Origin: Terrabacter sp. Root85
GTDB lineage: Bacteria > Actinomycetota > Actinomycetes > Actinomycetales > Dermatophilaceae
Length of the DNA: 64,000 nt
Assembly: GCF_001429185.1 (NCBI RefSeq)
Contig: NZ_LMIW01000010.1
Span: 1 to 64,000, forward strand
Reading direction: 5' to 3'
Below are positions 3,150 through 62,408 of the stretch, piece after piece (position 1 is the first letter of the stretch; the number at the start of each line of letters is the position of its first letter). Under the pieces are notes generated by a model. It ran no database searches. It saw only the letters and a program-made list of their open reading frames with translations, and was not told the DNA's origin. A program made the translations under genes and the position numbers.

Positions 3150-3613
3150 GCGACCTCGCCCGCGTCGACGCGCGCCGCGCCGGCACCACCCAGCTCGTCC
3201 GCATCACCGGCGAGCTCGACCTGTCCAACGCGCGCGAGCTCACCGACGCCCTCGGACACGCGGTCCCCGACGACGTCACGCTCGTCGTCGTCGACCTCAG
3301 CGGCACGACCTACCTCGACAGCGGCGGCATCGCCGCGTTCTTCCGCCTCTCCCAGCGACTACGGGACCGCCGACAGGACCTCCGGCTCGTCGTCCCCCAC
3401 GACTCGCCCATCCGCGCCGTCGTCGAGCTGACCCGGCTGAGCCAGGTGATCCCCGTCGACGAGAGTGCCCCCGACCTCCCCGGCCAGATGGCGTATGCCG
3501 CCCTCCCGCCCGACGGCGCGCCCGCCCCGTCCCAGCCCCCACCCACCACAGACCTGCCCGATCCCGGGGACCCTGACCTGGCCGAGCCCGAGGGCGATCA
3601 GCGCAACGGGTAG
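3146..3613 (+). CDS. STAS-domain anti-anti-sigma factor
   Basis: The protein is 155 aa. Residues 1-110 are a STAS fold containing TTYLDSGGIAAF, in which the Ser after Asp is the usual phosphorylation site. The tail is Pro-rich and disordered. In partner switching the unphosphorylated STAS protein captures an anti-sigma factor and frees the sigma factor. It is translationally coupled (ATGA) to the phosphatase/kinase upstream, which is its likely partner. Its last 16 bp overlap the end of the convergent sigma gene, so antisense interference is possible. An octamer GTATGCCG lies at 3493. Confidence 0.85.
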   Translation: MSDLARVDARRAGTTQLVRITGELDLSNARELTDALGHAVPDDVTLVVVDLSGTTYLDSGGIAAFFRLSQRLRDRRQDLRLVVPHDSPIRAVVELTRLSQVIPVDESAPDLPGQMAYAALPPDGAPAPSQPPPTTDLPDPGDPDLAEPEGDQRNG

Positions 3614-5382
3614 CTGCCCGACCCGGGCAGCGTCGCTCCGGAGCGGTCGGTGAAGCGGGCCACGAGGTCCCCCGAGAGACGGGGCTGCACGCGGGTGACC
3701 TCGACGACGACCTCCCCGGCGCGCAGCCGCCCGTCGAACTGCGCCGTCGGCTGGCTCACGTGCTCGACGACCCGGGCGCCGTGCACGTCGCGCACCGAGG
3801 TGAGGAGCCAGCCGGCCGGCGCCGTCAGGTGCGCGAGATAGCCGCGGTCGCTCGGCGTGAACGTCAGGCTCGTCACCGTGCCGACCGGAGCGGGAGGCGG
3901 CGCGACCTTGGTCGTCGGGGTCGGCCGGCTGCTCGTCGGCGTCGGCGTCGTCGTCGGGCTCGGGCTCGGACGGCTCGTCGAGGTGGCACTCGTGCCGGTG
4001 GAGGTCGGTGCGGGGCGCGACGGCGGCCTCGTCTGCCGGTCGGCGCTCCCGCTCCGGCCGCCCGACGACCGGAAACGCGAGACGTTCTCGGCCGTCGCCA
4101 TGCCGATCACCGGTCGCGGCGCGGTCGACGACGGCACCGACGAGCTCGTCGTCTCGGCCGGGTAGGGCGACTCCGTCCCGTCCACCGGTCCGGCCGACGA
4201 GTCCCGGCCCACCGGCGCGTCGGCCGAGACCCGTCCGGCCGGCTGGAGCTGGAGCAGGACGAGCGCCGTCGCGACGACGAGTGCAGCCGCAGCCAGCACC
4301 GCGGCCGCCGAGCGACCCGGCACCGACAGCACGCGACCGTTGACCCCGCCCGAGCCACCTCCGGGCCCACCTCCACTGACGTCGGCGGCGAACTCTGACA
4401 GGTCGTCGGCCCCGTCCATGAGCGAGGCCACGCCCACGGCGACCGGGATCGTGGCACCGCCCGTCGCTGCGACCGCACCCACGCCCGCTGCACCGGCGCC
4501 GACCGTGCCGTCGCCCACCGTGCCGTCGCCCACCGCGTCGGCGACACCGACCCCCGACGCCACCGCGAACGCCCCGGGCAGGAGCACCGGCGCGACGCGC
4601 AGCCGGATGGCCGCGTCGACGTCGACGACGTCGAGCACCGCTGCCCGGCACCGGGCGCAGCCGTCGAGGTGCTCGTCGACGCGCTCGCGAGCCTTGACCG
4701 GGAGCGAGTCGCGCACGTAGCCACCGAGATGGCGTCGCACCGCCCGACATTCGGCGTCGCCGGCGTTCGCGACGAGCTCGGAGAGGAAGGTCTGGCGCAG
4801 CCGCTCGCGTGCCCGCTTGCTCCGGCTCGCGATGCCGTTCGGCGTCGTGCCCAGCCCGGGGGCGATCTGGTGCGGCTTCTCCTCGTGCACGACCAGACGC
4901 CAGAGCAGCGACCGGGACTCGTCGGGCAGCGAACGCCAGGCCGCCCAGACGGCGTCGCGCTCCTCGGCGTCGACGGCCTCGTCCTCCGCCGAGGCAGCCG
5001 TGCGGGTGTCGACGGTCGTCTCGTCGTCGGTCAGCACGACCCGGTTCGTGTAGCGCCGCGCCACGTCGATGTTGGCGCGGCGCAACGTGCTGAGCAGGTA
5101 GGGCCGGAAGGCGGTGTCGGGCCCGCCCCCACCACGGAGGGCATCGAGGGTGCGGGTGAAGCTCTCGCTGACGAGGTCGTCGACGTCGCTCGGCGAGGCG
5201 ACCCGGGAGGCGAGCCGTCGGGCCGCGGGCTCGTGCCGCGACCACAGCGCGGAGTAGGCGGCGTCGTCGCCCGCCCGAACCCGGTCGACGAGCGCCGCGT
5301 CGCTCTCGGGTCCGTCGACGCGTACGCCCTCGTCCGCCCCATCCACGGACTCGCCGCCGTGCTCGTCGTGCGCCCGCTCCAC
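3598..5382 (-). CDS. Fused ECF-type sigma factor and membrane anti-sigma protein
   Basis: The protein is 594 aa, far longer than an ordinary ECF sigma factor (about 200 aa). Residues about 28-100 resemble sigma region 2 and about 140-200 region 4 (LRQTFLSELV follows the helix-turn-helix). A zinc anti-sigma motif follows at about 215-250 (HLGGYV then HLDGCARC). A Gly/Ala-rich stretch leads to one membrane span near 350-370 (AAAVLAAAALVVATALVLL), then a long Ser/Thr/Pro tail that should lie outside the cell, and a final beta-rich domain. The sigma factor is thus probably held at the membrane by its own C-terminal half. The start is GTG at 5382. Its convergence with the phosphatase/STAS pair suggests one regulatory locus, but the link is inference. 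Confidence 0.82.
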   Translation of the reverse strand: MERAHDEHGGESVDGADEGVRVDGPESDAALVDRVRAGDDAAYSALWSRHEPAARRLASRVASPSDVDDLVSESFTRTLDALRGGGGPDTAFRPYLLSTLRRANIDVARRYTNRVVLTDDETTVDTRTAASAEDEAVDAEERDAVWAAWRSLPDESRSLLWRLVVHEEKPHQIAPGLGTTPNGIASRSKRARERLRQTFLSELVANAGDAECRAVRRHLGGYVRDSLPVKARERVDEHLDGCARCRAAVLDVVDVDAAIRLRVAPVLLPGAFAVASGVGVADAVGDGTVGDGTVGAGAAGVGAVAATGGATIPVAVGVASLMDGADDLSEFAADVSGGGPGGGSGGVNGRVLSVPGRSAAAVLAAAALVVATALVLLQLQPAGRVSADAPVGRDSSAGPVDGTESPYPAETTSSSVPSSTAPRPVIGMATAENVSRFRSSGGRSGSADRQTRPPSRPAPTSTGTSATSTSRPSPSPTTTPTPTSSRPTPTTKVAPPPAPVGTVTSLTFTPSDRGYLAHLTAPAGWLLTSVRDVHGARVVEHVSQPTAQFDGRLRAGEVVVEVTRVQPRLSGDLVARFTDRSGATLPGSGSYPLR

Positions 5383-6483: not shown

Positions 6484-6544
6484 CCGAGGGCGTATGCCGT
6501 CCGCCCGGCTCCCCGGGTCGGGCACCCGGCCCGCGCGTTCGCGC

Positions 6545-7228
6545 TCAGACGGTCTGCGTGGCCACCCCGCGCAGCAGCGCGAGGTAGTCCTCGACCGGGT
6601 GGGCTCCGGTCACGGCGGCATACCCGTTGGCGACGACGAACGGCGTCGACGTCACACCCATGGACCGCGCCTGCTGCTCGTCCTCACGCACCTGTTCGGC
6701 GTACTCGTCGGAGGCGAGCACGGCCGACACCCGCCGCTCGTCGAGACCGCACTCGCCGGCGAGGCGCTGCAGGACCTCACGGTCGTCGATGGCGAGGCCC
6801 TCGCCGAAGTGCGCGGAGTGGAAGCGCTCGACCGCCGCGGAGCGCAGCGCGGGCCCGCCCATCTCGCCGGCGAGGGCGCAGAGCCGGTGCGCGTCGAAGG
6901 TGTTGGCGCGCACCGCGCGGTCCCAGTCGAAGACGAGGTCGTCGGCCTCGGCCACCTCGCTGGCCTTGGCGTTCATGAGCCGGCCGGCGCCCGCGTCGCC
7001 GCCGTGGCGCACCGAGAGGTGGTCGCTGACGGGCACGGAGCCACCGACCGGGACGTCCGGGTCGAGCTCGAAGGAGCGCAGGCGCACCGTGACGTCGTGC
7101 GGCCGCTCGAAGGCGGCAACGGCAGCCTCGACACGGCGCTTGGCGACCCACGAGTAGGGGCAGACCAGGTCGCTCCAGAGGTCGAGCTCGATGATGGTCG
7201 TGGACTCGGCAGCAGGCTGATCGGTCAT
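6545..7228 (-). CDS. DsbA-family oxidoreductase, FrnE type
   Basis: The protein is 227 aa from the ATG at 7228. A TTG at 7240 would add four residues. The N-terminal strand followed by WSDLVCPYSWVAKRR is the FrnE/DsbA active-site helix, and VTSTPFVVANGYAAVTGA gives the cis-Pro loop and C-terminal thioredoxin strands around a helical insertion. The usual CxxC is reduced to CPYS, as in many cytoplasmic FrnE-like proteins and 2-hydroxychromene isomerases, so the reaction is uncertain. There is no signal peptide, so the protein is cytoplasmic. It lies downstream of the NlpC/P60 gene but is separated from it by a strong terminator. Confidence 0.8.
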   Translation of the reverse strand: MTDQPAAESTTIIELDLWSDLVCPYSWVAKRRVEAAVAAFERPHDVTVRLRSFELDPDVPVGGSVPVSDHLSVRHGGDAGAGRLMNAKASEVAEADDLVFDWDRAVRANTFDAHRLCALAGEMGGPALRSAAVERFHSAHFGEGLAIDDREVLQRLAGECGLDERRVSAVLASDEYAEQVREDEQQARSMGVTSTPFVVANGYAAVTGAHPVEDYLALLRGVATQTV

Positions 7229-9211: not shown

Positions 9212-10465
9212 TCAGGGACCGCCCGTCAGTGGCCCCGGCGTCGGCCCGGTCCTCGCGCGTCGGGTCGGGTCGTGCCGTGGCACCCAGATGCGCAGCCAGC
9301 CCGCCCCGACCACGGCACCCACGCCGAGCACGACGGCGGAGGCGCCGAGCGACATGATGGCGCTCAGCCCTGACAACGCCAGCGGACCCGCCGCCCTTCC
9401 CACGTCCGCGCAGAGCCGCCAACCGCCGAGGAACTGCGCGCGTCCGTCTGCGGGCGAGGCGTCGGCGCCCAGGGTCATGATGAGCCCCGCCCCGAGGCCG
9501 TTGCCGAGACCGAGCACGGTCGCCGCGGCCGTCACGGCGACGAGGCTCGTGGCGAGCGGGAGCAGCATCATGCCGAGGCCGAGCACGAGCATGCTGGGCA
9601 CGGCGGCCGCGACCCGGCCGTGGCGGTCCATGAGCCAGCCCGAGGGGTAGAAGAGCGCCATGTCGAGCGCCCCGGCGACCCCGAAGACGAGCGACGTCTG
9701 TGCCGGGGAGAAGCCGACCGACTCGGCCCACAGCGGCACGAGGGCCTCGCGGATGGCGCGCGCCCCGGCCACGCACATGGCCCCGGTGCCGAGCGTCAGG
9801 AGGACGTGCCGGTGCTGCAGGAGCACGGATGCCACGCTGCGCGGCGGTCCGCCGCCCCGGATCCGGTGCGCCGAGCCGGTGATGTCCGGCGCGACGAGGA
9901 CGAGGACGAACGCGGCGATGCTCGCGACGCCGCCGACGGCATACGCCGCCTCGGTGCCCCACCTCGCGATGACGAGCGATCCGATGAACGGGCCGACGAA
10001 GTAGCCGATGCGGTGCACGCCACCCAACGTCGACAGGGCCCGCGCCCGCATCGCCACCGGGACCGCCTCGGTGAGGTAGGCCTGCCGGGCCAGGCCGAAG
10101 AGCGAGCCGGCGAGCCCGATGACGAACACCCCGACGAAGAGCATGACGAGACCGCCGGCCAGAGCCGCGACGAGCATGCCCATGGCCTCGATCACGGCCG
10201 CGACGAGCAGCGCCCGGCGCTCCCCGATACGGGCCGCGAGGGCACCGGACGGCAGGTCGCCGAGCAGCTGACCCACGCCCAGCATCGCGACGAGCAGCGC
10301 CGCGACGCCGACCGAGGCGCCGAGCTCACGCGCCGACACGGCGATGATCGGGGACACCGCGCCCGCGCCCGTCGAGCCCAGGAGGGTGGGCCCGTAGGCC
10401 GACAGCGCGATGGCACGCAGGCTGCCGCTGCGCCCCTCCGCGCCGTCGCCCTGAATCTCGGTCAC
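9212..10465 (-). CDS. MFS transporter
   Basis: The protein is 417 aa with about 12 hydrophobic spans and a GERRALLVAA-type cytoplasmic loop after TM2, as in the major facilitator superfamily. The substrate is unknown. The GTG start at 10465 lies 8 nt after TAGGGT (10474-10479 on the complement), so the mRNA is probably leaderless. It ends 29 bp before ideR on the same strand, so it may read into ideR, but ideR has its own SD. Confidence 0.8.
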   Translation of the reverse strand: MTEIQGDGAEGRSGSLRAIALSAYGPTLLGSTGAGAVSPIIAVSARELGASVGVAALLVAMLGVGQLLGDLPSGALAARIGERRALLVAAVIEAMGMLVAALAGGLVMLFVGVFVIGLAGSLFGLARQAYLTEAVPVAMRARALSTLGGVHRIGYFVGPFIGSLVIARWGTEAAYAVGGVASIAAFVLVLVAPDITGSAHRIRGGGPPRSVASVLLQHRHVLLTLGTGAMCVAGARAIREALVPLWAESVGFSPAQTSLVFGVAGALDMALFYPSGWLMDRHGRVAAAVPSMLVLGLGMMLLPLATSLVAVTAAATVLGLGNGLGAGLIMTLGADASPADGRAQFLGGWRLCADVGRAAGPLALSGLSAIMSLGASAVVLGVGAVVGAGWLRIWVPRHDPTRRARTGPTPGPLTGGP

Positions 10466-10543: not shown

Positions 10544-10882
10544 TCAGAGGACGAGCAGACCGATGGCGGTGGAGGCGGCGTTGGCGGCGACGACCGCCAG
10601 CGCCACCGTCACCGCGTCCTCGCGCGCCCGCACCCGCCAGCCCGCGACGAGGAGCACGGTCTCCACGGCGGCGACGGCGACCTCCGCCCCCACGAGCTGC
10701 CACGGTGACCCGAAGCCCGTCGACACGGCATACAGCACGGGGTGGGTCACGACGTTGACGCCGACCGCGCCGACGAGCGCGCGGCCCCACCCGGCCCAGC
10801 CTGCCGCGCGCGCGAACGCCACGAGCACGGGCACCTCGACGGCCAGCGTCAGCGCCAGGGCCTGCAGCGCAGCGGGGCTCAC
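10544..10882 (-). CDS. Small membrane protein of unknown function
   Basis: The protein is 112 aa from the GTG at 10882. It has three or four hydrophobic helices (LALTLAVEVPVLVAFARA, GAVGVNVVTHPVLYAV, VAVAAVETVLLVAG, AVTVALAVVAANAASTAIGLL) and few charges. It is divergent from, and its start nearly abuts, the polytopic membrane gene that follows on plus, so the two probably share a promoter region. I do not recognise the family. Confidence 0.6.
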   Translation of the reverse strand: MSPAALQALALTLAVEVPVLVAFARAAGWAGWGRALVGAVGVNVVTHPVLYAVSTGFGSPWQLVGAEVAVAAVETVLLVAGWRVRAREDAVTVALAVVAANAASTAIGLLVL

Positions 10883-10915: not shown

Positions 10916-12079
10916 GTGACCGACGCGCCCGACCCGGCCGTCGCGGTGCATCGTTCGAGCACCATCACGCTCCTCGTGCTGATGGCAGTCTGCCTCGCGC
11001 TCGCGATCGCCCTCGGGGCGCCGATCGCGACCGCCGTGATCGGTCTCATCCTCTTCGGCATCCTGCACAACCTCCTCGAGGTCCGCTACGTCGCGGGCCG
11101 CTTCGCCGGCCTGCTCGGGCGGCCCTTCCTCGAGCTGCTCGCCGCACTCGTCACCGGCATCGTGGTCTGCCGGCTCCTCGCCGGTGTGGTCGGGCGGCCC
11201 GCGCTGCTCGCCGAGATCGTGCTCGGCTACGTCATCCTCGCGGCTGCCGCCCGTCACGGGCTCGACGGCCGGCGGCGCGTCGCCGCCTGGGTCCTCGTCG
11301 GTGCCGCGGCTGCCGTCTCGCTGACCTTCCCGACGTACCACTTCGTCGTGCTGACCCACCTGCACAACGTCGTGCCCCTCTTCTTCCTCTGGGAGTGGTC
11401 GCGCCGGATCACTTCGCGTCGCGGGCGGCAGGCGTTCCGGGCCGTGCAGCTGCTGTGGGTCGTCGCCATCCCGGCGGTGGTCCTGCTCGGGTTCCTCGAC
11501 GGGTGGCTCAGCGCCGACCCCGGCATCGTGCGCAGCGTCGTCGGCGACGGCCAGACCGTCCTCGCCGCGAGCGCCCCGCCGAGCGCCGCGGCGACGGTGC
11601 TCGGGATGCGCTTCCTCACCGTCTTCGCCTTCATGCAGACGATGCACTACGTCGTGTGGGTGGCGCTGCTCCCCCGCGTCGCTCCGGACGCCTCGGCGGC
11701 CTTCGAGGCCCGCGTGCCGTGGGTGACCGGTCCGCGGCTCTGGGCCGTCGGATTCGTCGCCGCCGCACTCTTCGCCGTCCTCTTCGGGCTCGACTTCGCC
11801 CAGGGCAAGACGTTGTATGCCGCCCTGGCAAGCTATCACGCCTACCTCGAGCTGCCCGTGCTGCTCGCCCTGCTCGTGGGGGCCCGCAGCCTGTCCTCGC
11901 CCTCCCGCTCCGCCGACCGCCGTGACGGCGCCGGCTCGGGGACCGGGACGACCCCGCCGACCCCGCCGACCCCCACACCGCCGACGCCGCTCCCTCCGGC
12001 GGGCGGCGGGTCACGCGGCGCCGAGCTGAGGCCCGAGGCCACGGCGGCGGTCGCCCCGGACACCGAGGTGGGGCCATGA
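10916..12079 (+). CDS. Polytopic membrane protein with intramembrane histidines, unknown
   Basis: The protein is 387 aa from the GTG at 10916. A GTG at 10886 would overlap the divergent gene's start region. It has about nine hydrophobic segments and a Pro/Thr tail. Histidines sit next to or in the membrane at GILHNLLEVRY, PTYHFVVLTHLHNVV, MQTMHYVVW and ASYHAYLELP. This pattern resembles metal- or heme-binding membrane enzymes, but I cannot match it to a family. The next gene overlaps it by ATGA, so they form an operon. GTATGCCG lies at 11815. Confidence 0.65.
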   Translation: MTDAPDPAVAVHRSSTITLLVLMAVCLALAIALGAPIATAVIGLILFGILHNLLEVRYVAGRFAGLLGRPFLELLAALVTGIVVCRLLAGVVGRPALLAEIVLGYVILAAAARHGLDGRRRVAAWVLVGAAAAVSLTFPTYHFVVLTHLHNVVPLFFLWEWSRRITSRRGRQAFRAVQLLWVVAIPAVVLLGFLDGWLSADPGIVRSVVGDGQTVLAASAPPSAAATVLGMRFLTVFAFMQTMHYVVWVALLPRVAPDASAAFEARVPWVTGPRLWAVGFVAAALFAVLFGLDFAQGKTLYAALASYHAYLELPVLLALLVGARSLSSPSRSADRRDGAGSGTGTTPPTPPTPTPPTPLPPAGGGSRGAELRPEATAAVAPDTEVGP

Positions 12080-13889: not shown

Positions 13890-14516
13890 TCAGTCGGCGA
13901 CGAGGATCCCGAGCTCGGCCGCGAACGCGTCGGCGAGGTCGATGACCTGCGGGCGGCTCATCGTCGCGCCCTTGAGCCCGGCGAGACCCACCGGCGAACG
14001 GAGCGTGGCCCCAGAGAGGTCGAGCGCGGCATACGTCCCGCGACCGAAGGTCGGTGACACGAGCGTGCACCCCTCGAAGGTCAGGCCGTCGACGGTGGCT
14101 TCCTGGAGGTCGAGCTCGACGACGACGCAGTCGACGAAGGCGACGTCCTTGAGCCGGGCGCCGCGCAGGTTGAGGAAGTCGACCTTGCCGCCACGCACCG
14201 TGACGTCGCGCCACGTCGAGCCCCAGGCGGAGACGGCGGCCAGCCGGCACCCCTCGATGGTCGTCTCGATGATGCTCGCCTCGGCCAGCGTCACGCCGAC
14301 GCCGCCCACGCGCTCCCACTCGCACTCCGACCAGCGCGAGCCCTCGAGGTGCGCCTCGTCGAGCGTGCCGCCGAGCACCGAGCACTCGAGGAACGAGTGG
14401 CCCTCGGCGTGGGTCCCGGTGAAGTCGGTGCCCTCGAAGCGGACCGCGTCGTGATGTTGGTCTCGGGTGGCGAACACGGCGTCACGAAACACGGTCTGGT
14501 CGGCGGCTGACGGCAT
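13890..14516 (-). CDS. Pentapeptide-repeat protein
   Basis: The protein is 208 aa. Repeats of about five residues with a central hydrophobic position run through residues 20-180 (for example LNLRGARLKDVAFVDC, LDLSGATLRSPVGLAGL), giving a right-handed beta helix in known members. Some relatives mimic DNA and protect gyrase, but nothing here points to that. GTATGCCG copies lie at 14027 and across its start at 14511. It is divergent from citA with about 95 bp between. Confidence 0.75.
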   Translation of the reverse strand: MPSAADQTVFRDAVFATRDQHHDAVRFEGTDFTGTHAEGHSFLECSVLGGTLDEAHLEGSRWSECEWERVGGVGVTLAEASIIETTIEGCRLAAVSAWGSTWRDVTVRGGKVDFLNLRGARLKDVAFVDCVVVELDLQEATVDGLTFEGCTLVSPTFGRGTYAALDLSGATLRSPVGLAGLKGATMSRPQVIDLADAFAAELGILVAD

Positions 14517-14611
14517 ACGGTGAGTCTGTCAGCCGGGACCGACGCCCACCGTCCGCATCCCGGCTGCGGCCTCCACACCGCGGTGGTACCGCCTGCACAG
14601 CAAGGACGCAC

Positions 14612-16062: not shown

Positions 16063-18066
16063 ATGGTGCAGCGACTGCGAGTCCGAGGATCGATCGCCCT
16101 CGTCGGCGCCCTGGTCGCGGGAGGTGCGCTCGCCGTCCAGCCCACGCCCACGGCCGAGGCGGCGCCGACCCTCCAGGCCACGACGGTCGTGTCCGGCCTC
16201 AGCTACCCGTGGGACATCACCTGGGTCGGCGACCTCATGCTCTACGACCTGCGTGCCGGACAGGTCTGGAGCAAGCGAGGCGGCAACGCCCCTCGACGCG
16301 TCGCCATCTCGGGCTTCCCCTCGCTCTACGTCAACAGCGAGGGCGGCCTGCTCGGCATGGTCTCCGACCCATCCGCGGCGACGAACAAGCGCTTCTACAC
16401 CTGCCAGGCCGTACGCGACTCGGCGGGCAACCCGCTCGACGTGCGCGTCCTGCGCTGGCGACTGACCGGCGACACCACCGCGGTCTCCGACGGGTCGCCG
16501 GTCGTCACCGGGCTGCCCGTCACGAGCGGTCGCCACTCCGGCTGCCGGCTGCGCTTCGGCGGTGACGGCAAGCTCTACGTCGGCACCGGCGACGCGGCCA
16601 CGGGGACCAACCCTCAGAACCTCGGCTCGCTCGGCGGCAAGGTGCTCCGGGTCAACGCCAACGGCACGGTCCCGACCGACAACCCCTTCTACTCCCGCGG
16701 TGGCAACGCCCGCTACGTCTGGAACTACGGGCACCGCAACATCCAGGGACTCGCCGTGCGGCCCGGCACGACCGAGCTGTGGTCGGCCGAGCACGGCACG
16801 AGCCGCGACGACGAGATCAACCTCTCGGTCCGCGGCGGCAACTACGGCTGGGATCCCGTGCCCGGCTACGACGAGACCACCCCGATGACCGACCTCGGCA
16901 AGTTCCCGACCGCCCGCGTGGCCCTGTGGTCCTCGGGCGACCCGACCGTGGCGACGAGCGGGGCCACCTTCCTGCGCGGCTCGGCCTGGGGTGAGTGGCA
17001 GGGTGCTCTCGCCGTCGGCCTGCTCAAGGGCCAGGGCATCTACCTCATGCGCTTCAACCCGTCCCCCACGACGACCCGCCCCGCGACGGTGACCCGGATG
17101 GCGATCGCCCAGGGCTACGGCCGCATCCGAGCCGTGCAGCTCGGGCCCGACGGGGCGCTGTGGTTCACGACCTCCAACGGCACCGACGACAAGATCGTCC
17201 GCATCACCCCGAGAGCCACGGTGCCGAGACGGTCCGGCGGCAGCCTCATCTCGCCCGTCGGCGTCACCGCCGCGCGCACCGGGTCGCAGGTCACGACCTT
17301 CATCCGCGGCACCAACGACGCCGTCTCGTTCAAGCGCAGCACCAACGACGGGGCCTCGTGGGGTTCCTGGATCTCGGCCGGGGTCACCTCCACCGATGCA
17401 CCGTCGGCGACGAGCTCACGCTCCGGGCGCGTCGACCTCTTCACCCGCAACAGCGCGAGGCAGCTCGTCCACACGTGGTACCAGGACGGCATACGCAAGG
17501 GGTCGGCCAACCTCGGCGGCACCGTCGTCGCCCAGCACGGGGCCTCGCTCGGCAACGGGACGATGGACGTCTTCGCCGTCGCGACCACCGGATCGGCCTG
17601 GCGCAAGCACTTCGACGGCACGCGGTGGAAAGGCTGGATCTCGGCGGGCGGGGTCTTCACGTCGGGCCTGTCCGCGTCGGCGAACCCCGCGAGCGGCGGC
17701 AACCTCGTGACGGGCCGCGGCACCAACGGTGCGACCTACGAGCGGACCTTCTACCCGACGACCGCGACGAGCAGCTGGGTCCAGCGCGGCGACAACCTCG
17801 CGGCGTGGTCCGACCGCGCCCTCGGCGACGCCTGGCCCGGTCGAGCCCTCGTCGCCGTCGGCAACGGGGTCGACGGCCGCGCGGTCGTCCAGCGCGGCAG
17901 CCTCCTCGTCGGGACACCTCAGGCCTTCACGTCGGCCCCCGACGTCGTGACGCGCGCCGACGGCACCTTCCTGCTCTTCGGCCGGGGCTCGGGCGGCGAG
18001 CTGCGGGTCTACGACGGGCGGGTCGGCGCCTTCACGAGCACGTCGCTCGGCGGCATCGTCCGCTGA
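16063..18066 (+). CDS. Secreted PQQ-dependent sugar dehydrogenase-like beta-propeller protein
   Basis: The protein is 667 aa, with GGGGAG upstream of the ATG. A Sec signal (residues 1-33, ending AEAAP) is followed by a six-bladed GSDH/sGDH propeller at about 40-385. Landmarks are LSYPWDITWVGD, the conserved His in SGRHSGCRLRF, GGKVLRVNANG, WNYGHRNIQGLAV, and LWSAEHGTSRDDEINL. These are typical of soluble PQQ glucose/aldose sugar dehydrogenases. Residues about 390-667 form a second propeller of repeating WxSWISAG-type blades, as in PLL-like lectins, probably for binding surface sugars. Substrate and cofactor are inferred. No PQQ biosynthesis genes are in the window. Confidence 0.8.
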   Translation: MVQRLRVRGSIALVGALVAGGALAVQPTPTAEAAPTLQATTVVSGLSYPWDITWVGDLMLYDLRAGQVWSKRGGNAPRRVAISGFPSLYVNSEGGLLGMVSDPSAATNKRFYTCQAVRDSAGNPLDVRVLRWRLTGDTTAVSDGSPVVTGLPVTSGRHSGCRLRFGGDGKLYVGTGDAATGTNPQNLGSLGGKVLRVNANGTVPTDNPFYSRGGNARYVWNYGHRNIQGLAVRPGTTELWSAEHGTSRDDEINLSVRGGNYGWDPVPGYDETTPMTDLGKFPTARVALWSSGDPTVATSGATFLRGSAWGEWQGALAVGLLKGQGIYLMRFNPSPTTTRPATVTRMAIAQGYGRIRAVQLGPDGALWFTTSNGTDDKIVRITPRATVPRRSGGSLISPVGVTAARTGSQVTTFIRGTNDAVSFKRSTNDGASWGSWISAGVTSTDAPSATSSRSGRVDLFTRNSARQLVHTWYQDGIRKGSANLGGTVVAQHGASLGNGTMDVFAVATTGSAWRKHFDGTRWKGWISAGGVFTSGLSASANPASGGNLVTGRGTNGATYERTFYPTTATSSWVQRGDNLAAWSDRALGDAWPGRALVAVGNGVDGRAVVQRGSLLVGTPQAFTSAPDVVTRADGTFLLFGRGSGGELRVYDGRVGAFTSTSLGGIVR

Positions 18067-26453: not shown

Positions 26454-26468
26454 CGTGGTCGGGCGCGG

Positions 26469-49956: not shown

Positions 49957-51860
49957 GCGGCCACCCCCAGGACGGCGACGACCACGACGCCGACGAGCAG
50001 GCTGAGCAGCGACAGCGAGGGCACGGCGCGATGGCTCCGCTCCCCCGCCCGGCCGGCGGCCCGGGCGACGACGGCGGTCGCCCGCGGGTAGGCGTCGACG
50101 ACGTCACGGTCCAGCGCCACGACGAGACGCGCGACCGCGGTGACCGCCCGGCCGAAGCCGACGTATGCCGTGTCGACGCCGAAGCCGCGCACCGCCGGCT
50201 CCCGGACGCGGCTGGGGATCCGGTCGGCGACGTCGAGCCGGCCGCGGTCGCTGAGGGACCACACGGCATACGCGGCGCCGGCGACGAGCAGGACGGACAG
50301 CAGGGCGCTGAGGAGCCCGACGTGCACACCACCGCGGAGGCTGGCGAGGAAGAGGGTGCCGACGACGGTGAGGGCGGCCAGGACGGACACGACGAGCGCG
50401 GCCGGGAGCGTGATGGGGGCGTGGCCGTGGGCGTGGACGCGCTCGACCTCGGCGTCGTCGGCGCTGTCGGTGGTGGTCACGACGGCGACGTCCTCCTCGG
50501 CGACGACGGCGGGCTCGACGTCGGGCAGACGGCCCGTCGCGGCCACGGGGGTGTCGAGCAGCAGCCAGGCGCGGGTGCAGTAGGCCGCCGTGAGGACGAC
50601 GGTGACGAAGAGGGCGACGACGACGAGCCAGGCGCGGAAACCGCCACCACCCGTCGCGCCCTCGAGCGCGGCGTCGATGACGGTGTCCTTGGTGAAGAAG
50701 CCGATGAGCGGCGGTACGCCGGCGAGGGCGGCGAGGCCGATCCCCATCGACCAGCGCAAGGCGCCGGTCGGACGCAGTCGACCGCGCAGGGCGGCGACGG
50801 CGGTCGCGCCGGCGAGCACCGAGAGCCAGCCGGCCCCGAGGAAGAGCAGCGCCTTGAAGAAGGCGTGGCCGACGAGGTGCGCGATGCCGGCACCGGGCCC
50901 GAGCTCGGCCGGTGCCGCGGCGAGCGCCGAGAGCATGATCGCGATCTGGCTCAGGGTCGAGTAGGCGAGCATCCGCTTGAGGTCGGTCTGCACGAGCGCG
51001 AGCAGGGCGGCGTAGACCATGGTCACGGCTGTCAGGACGGCGAGCAGGGTGCGCGCGCCGTCGTGACCGGCGTAGAGCGAGAAGAGGCGGGCGATGACGT
51101 ACGTGCCGGCTGCGACCATCGTCGCCGCGTGGATGAGGGCCGACGCCGGGGTCGGGCCCTCCATGGCGTCGGGGAGCCAGTCGTGGAACGGCACGAGACC
51201 CGACTTGCCGGCCACACCGATGACGATGCCGACGAGACCGATCGTGAGCAGCGTGCCGTCCCCGCCGGCCGTGAGCACGGCCATGAGGTCGGTCGACCGG
51301 GCCCGCACCGAGAGCGCGACGATGCCCACGACCATGGCGATGTCGGCCACGCGGGTGACGATGAAGGCCTTGTAGGCCGCTCGCCTCGCCGCCGCACGCT
51401 CGCTGTCGTGGCCGATGAGCAGCCACGAGCACCAGCCCATGACCTCCCAGCCGACGAGCATGAGCACGAGGTCGCCCGACTGGACGAGGAGCAGCATGCC
51501 GGCCGCGAAGAGCGAGACGGTCGCGGCGAACTGGCCGTAGCGGGGGTCGTCGCGGAGGTACCACGCGGTGAAGACCTGGATGCCGAGGACGACGAGGGCG
51601 ACGACGAACGCCACGAGGCCCGAGACACGGTCGGAGAGCAGGTGCAGCGGCACGGAGAGGTCGCCGAGCGGGAGACTGCCGATCGACTCGATGTCGGCCG
51701 TGCGCGACGGTGCGACCCACTGGATGAGCCCGAGCACCGCGACGTAGGCCGACACCGACACGGCGACGGCCGCCGCGAGCCCGCGCCGGCGCCGCGTGAG
51801 CAGCCCCACGAGGGCCGCCAGCGCCGGGAGCACGATGATCATCCGAACGATCCAGCTCAT
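49947..51860 (-). CDS. nuoL: NADH-quinone oxidoreductase subunit L
   Basis: The 637-aa distal proton-pumping subunit has GWEVMGWCSWLLIGHD with the key Glu, GKSGLVPFHDWLPDAMEGPTPASALIHAATMVAAGTYV, and QTDLKRMLAYSTLSQIAIM. The long lateral helix region near the C-terminus is present. An acidic insertion (DSADDAEVERVHAHGHAP) lies in a loop. The ATG at 51860 overlaps the nuoK stop. Octamers lie at 50163 and 50264. Confidence 0.94.
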   Translation of the reverse strand: MSWIVRMIIVLPALAALVGLLTRRRRGLAAAVAVSVSAYVAVLGLIQWVAPSRTADIESIGSLPLGDLSVPLHLLSDRVSGLVAFVVALVVLGIQVFTAWYLRDDPRYGQFAATVSLFAAGMLLLVQSGDLVLMLVGWEVMGWCSWLLIGHDSERAAARRAAYKAFIVTRVADIAMVVGIVALSVRARSTDLMAVLTAGGDGTLLTIGLVGIVIGVAGKSGLVPFHDWLPDAMEGPTPASALIHAATMVAAGTYVIARLFSLYAGHDGARTLLAVLTAVTMVYAALLALVQTDLKRMLAYSTLSQIAIMLSALAAAPAELGPGAGIAHLVGHAFFKALLFLGAGWLSVLAGATAVAALRGRLRPTGALRWSMGIGLAALAGVPPLIGFFTKDTVIDAALEGATGGGGFRAWLVVVALFVTVVLTAAYCTRAWLLLDTPVAATGRLPDVEPAVVAEEDVAVVTTTDSADDAEVERVHAHGHAPITLPAALVVSVLAALTVVGTLFLASLRGGVHVGLLSALLSVLLVAGAAYAVWSLSDRGRLDVADRIPSRVREPAVRGFGVDTAYVGFGRAVTAVARLVVALDRDVVDAYPRATAVVARAAGRAGERSHRAVPSLSLLSLLVGVVVVAVLGVAAWR

Positions 51861-53786: not shown

Positions 53787-54755
53787 TCACGAGAAGACCA
53801 CCACCCCGACGGCGGTCAGGGCGAGCTGGACGAGCGCCATCGGCACGAGCCACACCCAGGCGAGGCGCTGGAGCTGGTCCTCGCGCATGCGCGGCCACGA
53901 CACGCGGAGCCAGATGACGACGACCGCGACGAGGAAGCCCTTGAGGACCGTCCACACCCAGCCGAGCCACTGCTCGAACGGCCCTGCCCAGCCGCCGAGG
54001 TAGAGCACGGCGAAGAGCAGCGACATGACGACGATGCCGGCGTACTCGGCGAGCAGGAAGAAGGCGAACCGCAGGCCGGTGTACTCGGTGAAGGCGCCGA
54101 AGACGATCTCGGAGTCGGCGAGCGGCATGTCGAACGGCGGGCGCTGCAGCTCGGCGAGGGCCGCGACGAGGAAGACGACGGCGCCGGGCAGCTGCCAGAG
54201 CAGCCACCACGGGTTCCACGCCTCCGCGATGGAGACGAGCGACAGGCTTCCGGCGGCGAGGGCGACCGAGGCGACCGCGAGGACCATCGGCAGCTCGTAG
54301 GACACGAGCTGCGCGGCGGCGCGCATCGCCCCGAGCAGGGAGTACTTGTTGGCCGAGGCCCACCCGGCCATGAGCGTGCCGATGACGCCGACCCCGATCA
54401 CGGCGAGCACGAGCACGACGCTCGCGTCGACGTCGGCCCCGACGACCCGTGGCGAGAGCGGGATGACGGCGAGCGCCACGAGGTAGGGGATGAGCGCGAC
54501 GAAGGGGGCGAGGCGGAAGACCCAGCGGTCGGCCCGGGCCGGAGTGATGTCCTCCTTCTGGACGAACTTCACCCCGTCGGCGACGAGCTGGGCCCACCCG
54601 TGGAAGCCACCGGCATACATCGGCCCGAGGCGACCCTGCATGTGCGCCATGACCTTGTGCTCGGTCTGGCCGACGAGCAGCGGCAGCACGAGGAAGGCGG
54701 CGAGCACCGCGACGGCGCGCAGCACGACCTCGAGCCAGGGAGCGAGGTCGCTCAT
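53787..54755 (-). CDS. nuoH: NADH-quinone oxidoreductase subunit H
   Basis: The 322-aa membrane anchor of the quinone chamber has QTEHKVMAHMQGRLGPMYAGGFHGWAQLVADGVKFVQKEDITPARADR, GWASANKYSLLGAMRAAAQLVSYELPM and ALAELQRPPFDMPLADSEIVFGAFTEYTG. These carry the charged residues of the E-channel. Its start overlaps nuoC by ATGA, so nuoD, E, F and G, which normally lie between, are absent. Confidence 0.95.
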   Translation of the reverse strand: MSDLAPWLEVVLRAVAVLAAFLVLPLLVGQTEHKVMAHMQGRLGPMYAGGFHGWAQLVADGVKFVQKEDITPARADRWVFRLAPFVALIPYLVALAVIPLSPRVVGADVDASVVLVLAVIGVGVIGTLMAGWASANKYSLLGAMRAAAQLVSYELPMVLAVASVALAAGSLSLVSIAEAWNPWWLLWQLPGAVVFLVAALAELQRPPFDMPLADSEIVFGAFTEYTGLRFAFFLLAEYAGIVVMSLLFAVLYLGGWAGPFEQWLGWVWTVLKGFLVAVVVIWLRVSWPRMREDQLQRLAWVWLVPMALVQLALTAVGVVVFS

Positions 54756-55279: not shown

Positions 55280-55923
55280 CGGCCGTCCTCCCCCGGCTTC
55301 GCGCCACGGCGCAGGAGGGGACGGCGGAGGTCGCCGGCGCTGCCGACGCGGGTGCCGGCATACCTGCCCTTGAGCTTCTGCGTCGACAGGCGCTCGGCGG
55401 CGATCTGCTCCTGGAGGCGGATGATGCCGTGCAGCAGCGCCTCGGGGCGCGGCGGGCAGCCGGGGACGTAGACGTCGACGGGCACGATCTGGTCGACGCC
55501 CTTCGTCACGGAGTAGGAGTCCCAGTAGGGGCCGCCGGAGTTGGAGCAGGCGCCGAAGGAGATGACGTACTTCGGCTCGGGCATCTGGTCGTAGAGGCGG
55601 CGGATCGCCGGGGCCATCTTGTCGGTGACGGTGCCCGAGACGACCATGAGGTCGGCCTGGCGCGGGCCCGGCGCGAAGGGGATGACGCCGAGGCGGATGA
55701 AGTCGTGACGACCCATCGAGGCCGCGATGAACTCGATGGCGCAGCAGGCGAGCCCGAAGTTGAAGACCCAGAGGGAGTAGCGGCGGCCCCAGTTGAGGAC
55801 GACCTTGATCGGCTTGGGCGCGTGGGCGCCGAGGACGCCCATCGACGCCGGTCCGATGGTCGGCATCGGCAGGCTGACCGGCTGGCTCGCCGACTGGCCG
55901 GGCTGGCTCGGCGGCTGATCCAT
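55276..55923 (-). CDS. nuoB: NADH-quinone oxidoreductase subunit B
   Basis: The 215-aa subunit holds cluster N2 with Cys60-Cys61 (GLACCAIEF), Cys126 (FGACSNSGG) and Cys156 ([12 protein letters not shown]), all present, so it can pass electrons to quinone. The N-terminal 35 residues are Ser/Pro/Gln-rich, longer than usual. The start overlaps the nuoA stop by one base (TGATG) and the end overlaps nuoC by 4 bp. Confidence 0.95.
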
Positions 55924-58718: not shown

Positions 58719-59803
58719 CCACCGACCTGGGTATGCCGTCCAGCGGGCCAGGCGCCCCCGGTGCCCACGGCACCGCCGGCGTCCCACGCCTCACCGACGG
58801 CACCGCGCTGACGAAGAAGGACTTCACGTCCGACCAGGAGGTGCGCTGGTGCCCCGGGTGCGGGGACTACGCGATCCTCGCCGCCGTGCAGGGCTTCCTC
58901 CCCGAGCTCGGGCTCAAGCGCGAGAACATCGTCTTCGTCTCGGGCATCGGGTGCAGCTCGCGCTTCCCCTACTACCTCGACACCTACGGCATGCACTCGA
59001 TCCACGGCCGTGCCCCGGCCATCGCGACCGGCCTCGCGGCGACGCGAGAGGACCTCTCGGTCTGGGTCGTCACCGGCGACGGCGACGCCCTGTCGATCGG
59101 TGGCAACCACCTCATCCACGCCCTGCGCCGCAACGTCAACCTCAAGATCCTGCTCTTCAACAACGAGATCTACGGCCTGACGAAGGGGCAGTACTCCCCC
59201 ACCTCGCACGTCGGCCAGGTGACGAAGTCGACGCCGCTGGGCTCGCTCGACACGCCCTTCAACCCCGTGTCGCTCGCGCTCGGCGCCGAGGCGAGCTTCG
59301 TGGCCCGCACGATGGACTCCGACCGCCAACACCTGACGTCGGTGCTGCGTGCCGCGGCCGAGCACCGTGGGTCGGCGCTCGTCGAGATCTACCAGAACTG
59401 CCCGATCTTCAACGACGGCGTCTTCGACGTGCTCAAGGACCGCACCGAGGCGGCCGCCCGCATCCTGCACCTCGCCGACGGCGAGGAGGTCGGCACCGCC
59501 GAGACGGTCGTCGTGCGTGACGACCGCGGGTCGCTCGCCGTCGTGCCGCGCGCCGAGGCCGACCCGGCCCGAATCGTGCGCCACGACGAGTCGGCCCACG
59601 ACCCGTCCGCGGCGTTCGCGCTCTCGCGGCTCGACAGCCCCGACCTCGGGCACGTCCCGATGGGGATCTTCCGCAACGTCCAGCGCCCGACCTACGACGA
59701 CTCGCTGCGCGAGCAGATCGCCTCGGCCCGCACGGGTGAGGTCACGGACGCCGACATCGACGCCCTGCTCGCCGGTCGGGACACCTGGACCGTGGGGGCG
59801 TGA
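58715..59803 (+). CDS. korB: 2-oxoacid:ferredoxin oxidoreductase, beta subunit
   Basis: The protein is 362 aa from the GTG at 58715, overlapping korA as GTGA, with AAGGAGG upstream. Cys46 and Cys49 (RWCPGCGDY) start the 4Fe-4S set, with GIGCSSRFPYY giving a third. The TPP motif is VVTGDGDALSIGGNHLIHALRRNVNLKILLFNNEIYGLTKGQ. A further Cys lies in YQNCPIFNDGVF. The order is complete for KorB. The substrate (2-oxoglutarate rather than pyruvate) is inferred from two-subunit type and length. Confidence 0.94.
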
Positions 59804-60801: not shown

Positions 60802-60839
60802 GGAGCCATTCGTCGCACCCGCGGTGACAGACTGCCGGT

Positions 60840-62408
60840 GTGAGCGACGTCGTCCTGGGCTCCCGCACCGGTCGGTTCGTCATCGCCGCTGCCGTGCTCG
60901 GCTCGGGGATGGCCCTGCTCGACGGGACCGTCGTCAACGTCGCGCTCGTCCGGATCGGCGAGGAGCTCGGCGCGAGCCTCGCCGAGCTGCAGTGGATCAC
61001 CAACGGCTACCTCCTCGCGCTCGCCTCGCTCATCCTCCTCGGCGGGTCGCTCGGTGACCGCTTCGGCCGCCGACGCGTCTTCGTCATCGGGGTCGTGTGG
61101 TTCACGGTGGCCTCCGCCGCCTGCGGTCTCGCGCAGTCACCCGTCCAGCTCATCGTCGGCCGGGTGCTCCAGGGCGTGGGAGGGGCGCTGCTGACGCCGG
61201 GCAGCCTGTCGATGATCCAGGCGTCCTTCCGTCCCGACGACCGCGGCAAGGCCATCGGCACGTGGTCCGGACTCGGCGGCATCGCCTCCGCCCTCGGGCC
61301 CTTCGTCGGCGGGTGGCTCGTGCAGTACGCGAGCTGGCGCTGGGCCTTCCTCGTCAACCTGCCCCTCGGCGCCGCGACCGTCTGGATCGCGCAGCTGCAC
61401 GTCCCCGAGACCAGGGACGACCGTGCCGACCACCACTTCGACGTGACCGGCGCGGTGCTCGCGACGCTCGCCCTGGGAACGACGACCTTCGCCCTGATCC
61501 AGCACGAGTCGCTCGGAGCGACGGCGGCCACCGGGGTCGGGCTCGTCGGCCTCGCCATCGGCGCGGCGTTCGTCGTCGTCGAGCGCCGTATCTCACACCC
61601 GATGGTCCCGCCCGCTCTCTTCGCGTCGCGCCAGTTCAGCGCGGCCAACGCGATGACCCTGCTCGTGTATGCCGCCCTGGGCGCCGTCTTCTTCTTCCTC
61701 ACCCTCCAGCTCCAGACCGTCCTCGGCTACGGCCCGCTGCTCGCCGGCATGGCCTCGCTGCCGGTCACCGTGCTCATGCTGCTCTTCGCGGCGCGGGGAG
61801 GTGCGCTCGCCTCCCGCATCGGGCCACGCCTGCCGATGACGGTCGGCCCGGTCGTGTGCGCGGTCGGCGCCCTCCTGCTGTCGGGTGTCGGCGCCGGCTC
61901 GACCTACTGGACCGGCGTCCTGCCCGGCATCTCCGTCTTCGGCCTCGGGCTCACCCTGCTCGTCGCGCCGCTGACGGCGACGGTCCTCGCCGCGGCTCCC
62001 GACCGCTACGCCGGCGTCGCCAGCGGGGTCAACAACGCCGTCGCGCGCGCGGGCAGTCTCCTCGCCGTCGCCGCACTGCCGGCCGTCGTCGGGCTCAGCG
62101 GCTCGGACTACGCCGTCCCCGAGGCCTTCTCGTCGGCGTACCGGACCGCGATGCTCCTGTGCGCCGGGATGCTCGCCGCCGGAGGTGTCGTGTCGTGGCT
62201 GCTCATCCGCAACCCCGCACCCGCGCCGTCCGGCACCGACGAGACGGGTGCCGAGCGGCAGGGGCGCGCCGCCGCAGCGGGGGCGACACGGCATACGCGA
62301 GCGGTTCCGGCCGGCTGGTCGTGCGCCGGCTCGGAGGGGTGCCCGGGGACGGCGCACCACCACGACGAGGACCTGCCCGCGCTGGGCGGGGCGCCGACCG
62401 GGCGCTGA
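60840..62408 (+). CDS. 14-TM MFS drug exporter (EmrB/QacA, DHA2)
   Basis: The protein is 522 aa. FVIAAAVLGSGMALLDGTVVNVALVRIGEELGAS, LQWITNGYLLALASLILLGGSLGDRFGRRRVFVIG and the TM5 motif C (GPFVGGWLVQYASWRWAFLVNLPLG) mark the DHA2 group. Such pumps expel drugs or dyes with protons. The last 60 residues form a His-containing tail (GTAHHHDED), not normal for the family. The GTG start is at 60840. An octamer lies at 61667 and another at 62289. Confidence 0.88.
   Translation: MSDVVLGSRTGRFVIAAAVLGSGMALLDGTVVNVALVRIGEELGASLAELQWITNGYLLALASLILLGGSLGDRFGRRRVFVIGVVWFTVASAACGLAQSPVQLIVGRVLQGVGGALLTPGSLSMIQASFRPDDRGKAIGTWSGLGGIASALGPFVGGWLVQYASWRWAFLVNLPLGAATVWIAQLHVPETRDDRADHHFDVTGAVLATLALGTTTFALIQHESLGATAATGVGLVGLAIGAAFVVVERRISHPMVPPALFASRQFSAANAMTLLVYAALGAVFFFLTLQLQTVLGYGPLLAGMASLPVTVLMLLFAARGGALASRIGPRLPMTVGPVVCAVGALLLSGVGAGSTYWTGVLPGISVFGLGLTLLVAPLTATVLAAAPDRYAGVASGVNNAVARAGSLLAVAALPAVVGLSGSDYAVPEAFSSAYRTAMLLCAGMLAAGGVVSWLLIRNPAPAPSGTDETGAERQGRAAAAGATRHTRAVPAGWSCAGSEGCPGTAHHHDEDLPALGGAPTGR

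What the first reader, a model, noticed from the sequence alone, without database searches (positions are those of the whole stretch)
3493..62296. Octamer GTATGCCG is strongly over-represented across the whole window
I count at least 36 exact copies on the two strands (19 plus, 17 minus) and several 7/8 matches. With about 72% GC, base composition predicts about 2. Plus copies begin at 3493, 6492, 11815, 18610, 20265, 21308, 26436, 28241, 30279, 33454, 34378, 37728, 38898, 40689, 44448, 47624, 50163, 58731, 61667. Minus copies begin at 6616, 9937, 10726, 14027, 14511, 17487, 20711, 24478, 27011, 31841, 37207, 38966, 44982, 50264, 54611, 55356, 62289. They occur in different reading frames, forcing rare ATA, TAT or GCA codons (GGC-ATA-C, GCG-TAT-GCC), and also between genes, so selection acts on DNA, not on protein. 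Spacing averages about 1.7 kb with no strand bias. This resembles uptake, Chi-like, nucleoid or methylation motifs. Published signals of this size in Actinobacteria are unknown to me.
Basis: partly seen in the sequence, partly recalled or inferred. Interest (0 to 1): 0.8.

Follow-up and report, generated by a model that had tools for sequence, protein, structure and literature searches.

The report
Uptake-sequence-like octamer in Actinobacteria
An eight-letter DNA word, GTATGCCG, is repeated about one to five thousand times in the genomes of many members of a family of soil actinobacteria and behaves like the "self" tags that Haemophilus and Neisseria use to recognise their own DNA when taking it up; we found no report of such a signal in Gram-positive bacteria.

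Summary
Codon usage cannot explain it (140 coding copies, 7.5 expected). Copies are non-palindromic, without strand bias, 3-fold enriched between genes, and conserved between Terracoccus species (86%; flanks 52%). In 400 kb elsewhere in the genome, 20 of 182 copies form inverted, hairpin-like pairs (none in the window). The word is enriched in 28 of 51 other genera of the family and in none of 38 genomes outside it. Seven of the 23 remaining genera carry a one-letter variant instead. These are hallmarks of Haemophilus/Neisseria uptake sequences, dialects included. RecBCD-Chi is disfavoured (no RecC, no strand bias). Most likely: an uptake-sequence system served by comEA/comEC and Flp/Tad pili. 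Hint: tad-1, a pilus locus of the type needed for transformation in Micrococcus luteus, is interrupted by serine-integrase elements in 4 of 8 assessable genomes of the genus, the window's own included. Weak points: uptake untested, receptor unknown; motif state does not follow comEC or, once phylogeny is considered, tad-1.

The parts
3493..3500 (+). GTATGCCG copy
6492..6499 (+). GTATGCCG copy, outside predicted genes
6616..6623 (-). GTATGCCG copy
9937..9944 (-). GTATGCCG copy
10726..10733 (-). GTATGCCG copy, outside predicted genes
11815..11822 (+). GTATGCCG copy
14027..14034 (-). GTATGCCG copy
14511..14518 (-). GTATGCCG copy at a gene edge
17487..17494 (-). GTATGCCG copy
18610..18617 (+). GTATGCCG copy, outside predicted genes
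20265..20272 (+). GTATGCCG copy, outside predicted genes
20711..20718 (-). GTATGCCG copy
21308..21315 (+). GTATGCCG copy
24478..24485 (-). GTATGCCG copy, outside predicted genes
26436..26443 (+). GTATGCCG copy, outside predicted genes, in a hairpin
27011..27018 (-). GTATGCCG copy
28241..28248 (+). GTATGCCG copy
30279..30286 (+). GTATGCCG copy
31841..31848 (-). GTATGCCG copy, outside predicted genes
33454..33461 (+). GTATGCCG copy
34378..34385 (+). GTATGCCG copy
37207..37214 (-). GTATGCCG copy
37728..37735 (+). GTATGCCG copy
38898..38905 (+). GTATGCCG copy, outside predicted genes
38966..38973 (-). GTATGCCG copy, outside predicted genes; inverted relative to 38898, 68 bp away
40689..40696 (+). 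GTATGCCG copy, outside predicted genes
44448..44455 (+). GTATGCCG copy
44982..44989 (-). GTATGCCG copy
47624..47631 (+). GTATGCCG copy
50163..50170 (+). GTATGCCG copy
50264..50271 (-). GTATGCCG copy
54611..54618 (-). GTATGCCG copy
55356..55363 (-). GTATGCCG copy
58731..58738 (+). GTATGCCG copy
61667..61674 (+). GTATGCCG copy
62289..62296 (-). GTATGCCG copy
26410..26465 (+). terminator-like hairpin that carries the copy at 26436
   Evidence: -38.7 kcal/mol, z -5.0

Best explanation
GTATGCCG (core of a longer weak consensus) is a DNA-uptake-sequence-like self tag of the actinobacterial family that holds Terracoccus. Inferred mechanism: during natural transformation a surface DNA receptor, perhaps a minor pilin of the Flp/Tad pilus (TadE or TadF of the tad-1 type), prefers DNA that carries the word; ComEA and ComEC bring one strand in and it recombines. 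Because copies that arise by mutation are taken up and recombined more often, the word accumulates and is kept on resident DNA, while newly arrived DNA lacks it. When the receptor's specificity drifts the word drifts with it (dialects); when uptake is lost the word decays. Shown here: enrichment, distribution, conservation, dialects, absence in some genera, presence of comEA/comEC and tad genes. Inferred: uptake preference, the receptor, the drive, the direction of gains and losses.
For: 2,300 copies per genome; 28 of 51 other genera of the family enriched, none of 38 genomes outside it. Not explained by protein coding. Conserved in 140 of 163 aligned sites between five relatives of the genus and the window, against 170 of 325 flanking octamers and 11,352 of 18,698 permuted octamers. 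No strand bias in 400 kb (87+/95-) and more even than random (CV 0.75 vs 0.95, 0 of 500 simulations as low). 37% outside and 63% inside predicted genes; for H. influenzae uptake sequences 65% inside ORFs, about 10% as inverted repeats and no orientation bias are reported (passages of PMC1939737). In 400 kb, 10 of the 12 neighbouring pairs under 60 bp are inverted (+-), 6 of them exactly 22 bp apart, i.e. 20 of 182 sites; 4 of 5 such pairs folded give z of -3.1 to -8.0, one -0.8. Dialects: GGATGCCG 3,949 / 3,816 / 2,195 copies in G034 / G024 / G052 (reversed word 289 / 392 / 207); GTACGCCG 3,903 / 2,618 / 2,216 / 1,359 in G048 / G056 / G031 / G032 (reversed 310 / 161 / 143 / 167); GTATGCGG in sampled DNA of Nostocoides sp. 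F2B08. All labels together cluster on a ComEC tree (15 changes, shuffled mean 21.1, 0 of 200 as low), as known dialects follow phylogeny (passages of PMC12616744). ComEC in 57 of 60 family genomes, ComEA near it in 30 of 30 loci examined. A tad-1 locus with layout tadA-B-C-flp-tadE-tadF-tadG and mostly G/XXXXEF pilin sites like M. luteus tad-1, where both tad loci are needed for transformation (passages of PMC4322843 and PMC6370729). A mobile-looking island in Janibacter sp. HTCC2649 has 4 copies in 36.6 kb, 25.8 expected; 7.9 kb of the element inside G000 tadC has none where the genome average predicts 3.7.
Against: No uptake or transformation has been measured here. Motif and competence genes do not track each other: ComEC is in all 12 motif-less genomes, and the 3 of 60 genomes without a ComEC match (G037, G041, G042; 58, 81 and 95% complete drafts) all bear the motif; Tad ATPases are in motif-less genomes too. 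The tad-1 minor pilin TadF is missing or broken in 5 of 12 motif-less and 3 of 41 motif-bearing genomes (Fisher p 0.010), but independent pairs on the tree show no signal and have no power. In the window's own genome tad-1 is interrupted by an inserted element. ComEA shows no visible difference between motif-bearing and motif-less genomes. Inverted pairs under 60 bp are absent from the window and from the matching 80 kb of five relatives, and only 3 +- pairs appear in 13 named 20-kb loci. Even spacing is not seen for the words of G048 and G045. Taken alone, GTACGCCG carriers (3 changes, shuffled 3.9) and motif-less genomes (9, shuffled 11.7) cluster only weakly on the tree.
Confidence: 0.6

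Rival explanations
1. Binding site of an intracellular protein (nucleoid, chromosome organisation, repair or segregation) that needs a regularly spaced word; dialects reflect drift of that protein.
For: Even spacing in G000, conservation, genome-wide density of one per 0.9 to 4 kb in enriched genomes (computed).
Against: Absence from close relatives (e.g. G036, which falls near Terracoccus with support 86/30, is 81% complete and has 66 copies) is odd for a core structural function. Inverted pairs, 3-fold intergenic enrichment with a low in divergent gaps (0.69 per kb, against 2.86 in convergent gaps; computed) and no strand bias are the uptake-sequence pattern. Gradients along the chromosome were not tested.
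Confidence: 0.2
2. Recombination hotspot (Chi-like) read by a helicase-nuclease other than RecBCD, such as AdnAB.
For: Octamer size, variants between lineages, density in the Chi range (recalled).
Against: Chi is strand-biased (recalled); here 87+/95- in 400 kb with no marked bias in any 20-kb bin. RecC found in only 18 of 51 family genomes and absent from G000, G003, G006. AdnAB was not searched.
Confidence: 0.08
3. Methylation- or repair-driven mutation bias: 5mC deamination of GTACGCCG to GTATGCCG, or Vsr-like repair, makes the word without selection.
For: GTACGCCG is scarce in several GTATGCCG-rich genomes (e.g. 91 in G051, 93 in G012).
Against: The 12 motif-less genomes hold 166 to 574 GTACGCCG, too few to yield 939 to 4,724 GTATGCCG. 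It predicts neither the GGATGCCG and GTATGCGG dialects, nor intergenic inverted pairs, nor conservation above flanks.
Confidence: 0.04
4. Transcription terminators or another RNA-level element that happens to use this word.
For: Hairpin pairs, none of 10 in divergent gaps (p about 0.02), convergent gaps richest.
Against: 63% of copies lie in predicted genes, in both orientations; only about 11% are in inverted pairs in 400 kb and none in the window. Terminator use looks secondary, as described for known uptake sequences.
Confidence: 0.05

Closest known systems
DNA uptake sequences of Pasteurellaceae (USS) and Neisseriaceae (DUS)
   Same: Hundreds to thousands of non-palindromic short words, no strand bias, intergenic excess, a share of inverted terminator-like pairs, one orientation preferred in reading frames, dialects that follow phylogeny, a longer weak consensus.
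   Different: Unrelated word; high-GC Gram-positive actinobacteria; full-length PilB-like ATPases in only 3 of 55 genomes and instead Tad/Flp pili; absent from many genera of the family; receptor unknown; function untested.
HIP1 of cyanobacteria (GCGATCGC)
   Same: Highly iterated octamer, lineage-restricted, low in some members.
   Different: HIP1 is palindromic and linked to orphan methyltransferases (start of abstract of PMC4390886); this word is not palindromic.
Chi sites of RecBCD/AddAB
   Same: Octamer-sized, over-represented, varies between taxa (recalled).
   Different: No strand bias; RecC absent from the window's genome.
Natural transformation of Micrococcus luteus (comEA, comEC, tad-1, tad-2)
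   Same: Same phylum and a similar gene set by layout: comEA-comEC and two or more tad loci.
   Different: The phrase 'uptake sequence' does not occur in that paper's main text (term search).

Membership tests
DNA uptake sequence (DUS/USS) | Short word over-represented by hundreds to thousands of copies genome-wide | tested here: met
DNA uptake sequence (DUS/USS) | No orientation bias along the chromosome | tested here: met
   87+/95- in 400 contiguous kb; whole replichores not compared
DNA uptake sequence (DUS/USS) | Intergenic excess and a share of inverted, hairpin-forming pairs | tested here: met
   (400 kb of G000); no such pair in the window itself
DNA uptake sequence (DUS/USS) | Dialects that follow phylogeny within a family | tested here: met
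   all labels together 0 of 200 shuffles as low, GTACGCCG alone only weakly clustered
DNA uptake sequence (DUS/USS) | Competence genes present in carriers | tested here: met
   ComEC 57 of 60, the three misses being drafts, ComEA in 30 of 30 loci, Tad-type ATPase matches in 55 of 55, 54 over the cut-off; but also present in motif-less genomes
DNA uptake sequence (DUS/USS) | A receptor pilin that binds the word | tested here: inconclusive
   No ComP- or PpdA-like protein was searched for; full-length PilB-like ATPases in 3 of 55; TadF presence does not track the motif after phylogeny
DNA uptake sequence (DUS/USS) | DNA with the word is taken up or transforms better | not testable with these tools
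   needs a bench assay
RecBCD Chi site | RecBCD present | tested here: not met
   RecC (PF04257) absent from G000, present in 18 of 51 family genomes
RecBCD Chi site | Strand bias | tested here: not met
   400 kb
HIP1-like highly iterated palindrome | Palindromic word | tested here: not met
   the sequence itself: GTATGCCG vs CGGCATAC
HIP1-like highly iterated palindrome | Cognate orphan methyltransferase | not tested
   no methyltransferase search or methylome
KOPS-type polar motif | Strong strand skew from origin to terminus | tested here: not met
   no skew in 400 kb; ori and ter not located

The most novel reading that the evidence does not exclude
A third, independently evolved uptake-sequence system, the first in Gram-positive bacteria: an actinobacterial family marks its own DNA with GTATGCCG or one-letter dialects, reads it with a Tad/Flp-pilus minor pilin, and its phage-like elements repeatedly integrate by serine integrases into the tad-1 pilus genes, as prophages elsewhere do into competence genes.
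Probability: 0.5. Interest if true: 0.92.

Novelty: new variant of a known kind. Interest (0 to 1): 0.85.

Why it matters
The uptake sequences described in the papers seen here belong to two Gram-negative families. A convergent system in Gram-positive actinobacteria with Tad pili would show that self-tagging of DNA has evolved again with different machinery, would give a third test of why cells prefer their own DNA, and offers natural dialect switches and absences between related genera for finding the receptor. It would also imply transformation, present or past, in bacteria of soil and of wastewater phosphorus removal (Tetrasphaera; PMC9123174, start of abstract in the listing), and help to explain gene flow there.

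Tried and rejected
ComEC presence and Tad ATPase presence do not separate motif-bearing from motif-less genomes. The ComEA helix-hairpin-helix domain shows no visible difference between them. RecC as a Chi partner was rejected. Codon explanation rejected. The idea that tad-1 (TadF) presence sets the motif is only weakly supported: naive Fisher p 0.010, no support from independent pairs. An intragenic bias towards gene ends, as reported for Pasteurellaceae (PMC2346458), is not evident (copies per fifth of gene length 26, 23, 34, 22, 35). The top words of G049 in the first 80 kb look like a CRISPR array, not a dialect; another 40 kb gave none. G045's word CGAAGGGG (78 in 80 kb) resembles no other dialect and may be another kind of signal; it was not counted genome-wide, nor was GTATGCGG. 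G009 (GGATGCCG 1,336, reversed 310), G027 and G046 are weak or mixed: G009 and G046 were left out of the TadF table, G027 was counted there as motif-bearing; on the tree G009 and G046 were labelled as without motif and G027 as weak. Structure prediction of TadF was not attempted because the rule of that tool does not list loci of the whole-genome tools. The paper search for the bare octamer found 643 papers; none of the 20 listed titles was about bacterial uptake. Searches listed no title or abstract start that reports uptake sequences in Actinobacteria; this covers only the listed part of the held open-licence library.

The test (motif-poor island) was made after seeing a gap in the listing, so the P value of 1e-7 is post hoc, and only 36.6 kb of the gap were read. 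Gene calls are from a simple GC-frame caller written here, so coding and intergenic shares are approximate. The match of the tad loci to M. luteus tad-1 and tad-2 rests on gene order and pilin processing sites, not on an alignment with M. luteus proteins. Names such as prfB were recognised by eye from the sequence and not searched.


Full report
WHAT IS THERE. In the whole 4.87-Mb genome there are 1168 forward and 1132 reverse copies, against 112 and 125 of the reversed word. In 464 kb read directly, 218 copies stand against 2.6 to 6.0 expected from Markov models of orders 1 to 4 with the motif masked; the strongest octamer that does not overlap it has a z of 14 against 60. The organism is a Terracoccus by kinship: contig 10 of same-genus genome G003 (80,554 bases) has the length of NZ_KB911829.1, Terracoccus sp. 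273MFTsu3.1; NCBI places the genus in Intrasporangiaceae.

NOT A CODING EFFECT. Given the amino acids and the codon usage of 435 predicted genes, 7.45 coding copies are expected and 140 are seen; five control words give 10, 0, 1, 1 and 1 against 5.1, 4.5, 6.7, 1.3 and 4.0. The favoured frame is xxG-TAT-GCC-Gxx on the coding strand (83 of 140), although TAT is only 6.5% of Tyr codons. One preferred orientation inside reading frames is also reported for known uptake sequences (PMC2346458, part 1 of 3 of the text read).

ANATOMY. Copies outside predicted genes are 67 of 182 in 400 kb (60 clear, 7 at gene edges), where 11.0% of bases are non-coding. Their density per kb is 2.86 in convergent gaps, 2.15 and 1.0 in the two co-directional kinds, and 0.69 in divergent gaps (computed). 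In these 400 kb twelve neighbouring pairs lie under 60 bp; 10 are inverted as GTATGCCG...CGGCATAC, 8 of them 18-22 bp apart and 6 exactly 22. No pair under 60 bp occurs in the window; the matching 80 kb of five relatives have no inverted pair either, and 13 named 20-kb loci have three, so the pairs are unevenly distributed. Five pairs and one window hairpin were folded: five of six have z between -3.1 and -8.0, one pair has -0.8. Around the octamer both intergenic (78) and coding (140) copies prefer C at -1 and T at +8 and avoid A/T at +12 and +15; in coding copies the last two coincide with wobble positions of the favoured frame, in intergenic copies that excuse does not hold. Some of these preferences recur in other genera. 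There is no strand bias (87+/95-). Spacing is more even than random in G000 (CV 0.75 against 0.95, 0 of 500 as low) and weakly so in the window, G003 and G034 (P 0.044, 0.05, 0.014), not for the words of G048 and G045 (P 0.52, 0.58).

CONSERVATION. In five relatives of the genus (85 to 95% identity over the aligned window) 140 of 163 window copies are intact, against 170 of 325 flanking octamers and 11,352 of 18,698 octamers of the same composition (sums). In G006, 29 of 31 copies are intact where flanks keep 27 of 62. Where both sides align, most differing sites differ by one base. Sites without an alignment were set aside.

DISTRIBUTION. Of 98 genomes, all 9 of the window's genus are enriched. 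Of 51 other genera of the family, one genome each, 28 are enriched (27 with over 100 per Mb and at least 3 times the reversed word, plus G023 with 285 per Mb and ratio 2.5). None of the 38 genomes from 19 other families reaches 100 per Mb; ratios there stay at about 1 to 4 on small counts. Of the 80 named 20-kb loci (L061-L099) were counted: carriers include Knoellia, Pedococcus, Ornithinimicrobium, Nostocoides/Tetrasphaera, Phycicoccus elongatus, Metallococcus and Leekyejoonella; Mobilicoccus pelagius and two Phycicoccus loci have none, a third Phycicoccus has 2. Whole records: P. elongatus Lp2 2,614, T. australiensis 3,226, Janibacter sp. HTCC2649 2,982, N. jenkinsii 3,272 copies (reversed word 80, 522, 59, 383).

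DIALECTS. The 23 remaining genera were sampled, four with 80 kb, eighteen with 22.5 to 40 kb, and G049 with both; G023 was sampled beside them as a weak carrier. Three are weak or mixed (G009, G027, G046), and 12 show none. Genome-wide counts in 51 genomes confirm the first two: GGATGCCG 3,949, 3,816 and, beside 1,217 GTATGCCG, 2,195 in G034, G024, G052; the other 48 genomes have 260 to 1,336, the window's own 1,040. GTACGCCG 3,903, 2,618, 2,216, 1,359 in G048, G056, G031, G032; the others have 91 to 870. On a ComEC tree of 52 genomes all labels together need 15 changes (shuffled mean 21.1, 0 of 200 as low); the GGATGCCG pair is one side of a branch (93/99), and all four GTACGCCG carriers fall in one clade of ten (100/100) with three GTATGCCG carriers, two motif-less genomes and G027. 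Taken alone, GTACGCCG (3 changes, shuffled 3.9) and the motif-less label (9, shuffled 11.7) cluster weakly; near-identical Terracoccus rows help the overall test, and the bootstrap had not fully settled.

FOREIGN DNA. Two read parts of the HTCC2649 chromosome (180-200 and 220-236.6 kb) with a tyrosine integrase, an IS110 transposase, a primase-like protein and a heavy-metal ATPase have 4 copies where 25.8 are expected; they were picked because of a gap in a listing. The 7.9 kb read of the element inside G000 tadC has none, where the genome average predicts 3.7.

MACHINERY. ComEC is in 57 of 60 family genomes; the three misses (G037, G041, G042) are drafts of 58, 81 and 95% completeness that bear the motif, and all 12 motif-less genomes have ComEC. 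ComEA is near it in all 30 loci read. Tad-type ATPases match in 55 of 55 (54 over the cut-off), and full-length PilB-like ATPases occur in 3 of 55. One conserved locus (tadA-B-C-flp-tadE-tadF-tadG) matches by layout and, in most rows, by G/XXXXEF pilin sites the M. luteus tad-1 locus; there both tad-1 and tad-2 are needed for transformation (passages of PMC4322843 and PMC6370729). In the window's genus this locus is intact in G003, G004, G005 and G008, but interrupted in G000 (tadC, 10.2 kb), G001 (tadA, 8.7 kb), G007 (tadA, same site, 10.1 kb) and G006 (tadA, 5.5 kb); G002 (74% complete) cannot be judged because the pieces lie at contig ends. In two other genera, G036 has 34.8 kb at the G006 site, and in G034 tadC ends at the G000 site with most of the rest missing. 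A serine recombinase (Resolvase plus Recombinase domains) sits at a junction in all five insertions with both ends found; matches to phage head, terminase and endonuclease families occur in G001, G000 and G007. Disruption of competence genes by prophages or transposable elements is on record (title of PMC7029219 and start of abstract of PMC12955456, listing). This fits tad-1 being a transformation locus, but serine integrases may simply favour conserved genes.

LIMITS. Motif state does not follow ComEC, ComEA or tad-1 in a clean way: the tad-1 TadF is missing or broken in 5 of 12 motif-less and 3 of 41 motif-bearing genomes (of 55 searched; G009 and G046 left out), Fisher p 0.010; independent pairs show nothing and cannot reach significance. 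In the window's own genome tad-1 is interrupted, so present-day uptake in this strain is doubtful even if the history is right. Gradients along closed chromosomes, methylation and AdnAB were not tested.

VERDICT. The motif is real, large and under selection or drive on the DNA itself. Its pattern is close to that of USS/DUS; the features of those are taken from passages of PMC1939737 and PMC12616744. We file it as working like an uptake sequence; membership is open because uptake and receptor are untested.

Noticed in passing
window 15811-15939: Four copies of the palindrome CACTCGAGTG (0.16 expected) at 15811, 15886, 15908 and 15930, upstream of the predicted gene 16063-18066; looks like an operator array.
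   Followed up: partly
L241 12142-20000 (G000:C13, about 100,133-110,301): A 10.2-kb element with a serine recombinase and a terminase small subunit inside tadC of the window's own genome; elements at three recurrent sites in tadA/tadC of relatives.
   Followed up: partly
L193-L196 (G049:C1:1000001-1080000): About 79 copies of a repeat with GGGAGTGATTCC in 80 kb: perhaps a large CRISPR array.
   Followed up: no
L197-L200 (G045:C1:500001-580000): CGAAGGGG, 78 copies in 80 kb on both strands, unrelated in sequence to the other words; weakly seen in sister genome G046.
   Followed up: partly
L282-L283 (Janibacter sp. HTCC2649, 180-237 kb): Motif-poor island with integrase, IS110 transposase, primase-like protein and heavy-metal ATPase.
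   Followed up: partly
L220, L240 (G023): CTTTCGAT, 10 copies in 40 kb (33 times expected), beside the GTATGCCG copies.
   Followed up: no
L245 3597-4658 (G034): Predicted 353-aa protein made of repeats of VPDWQRQLFQKPL in the DNA that lies where part of tad-1 is missing.
   Followed up: no
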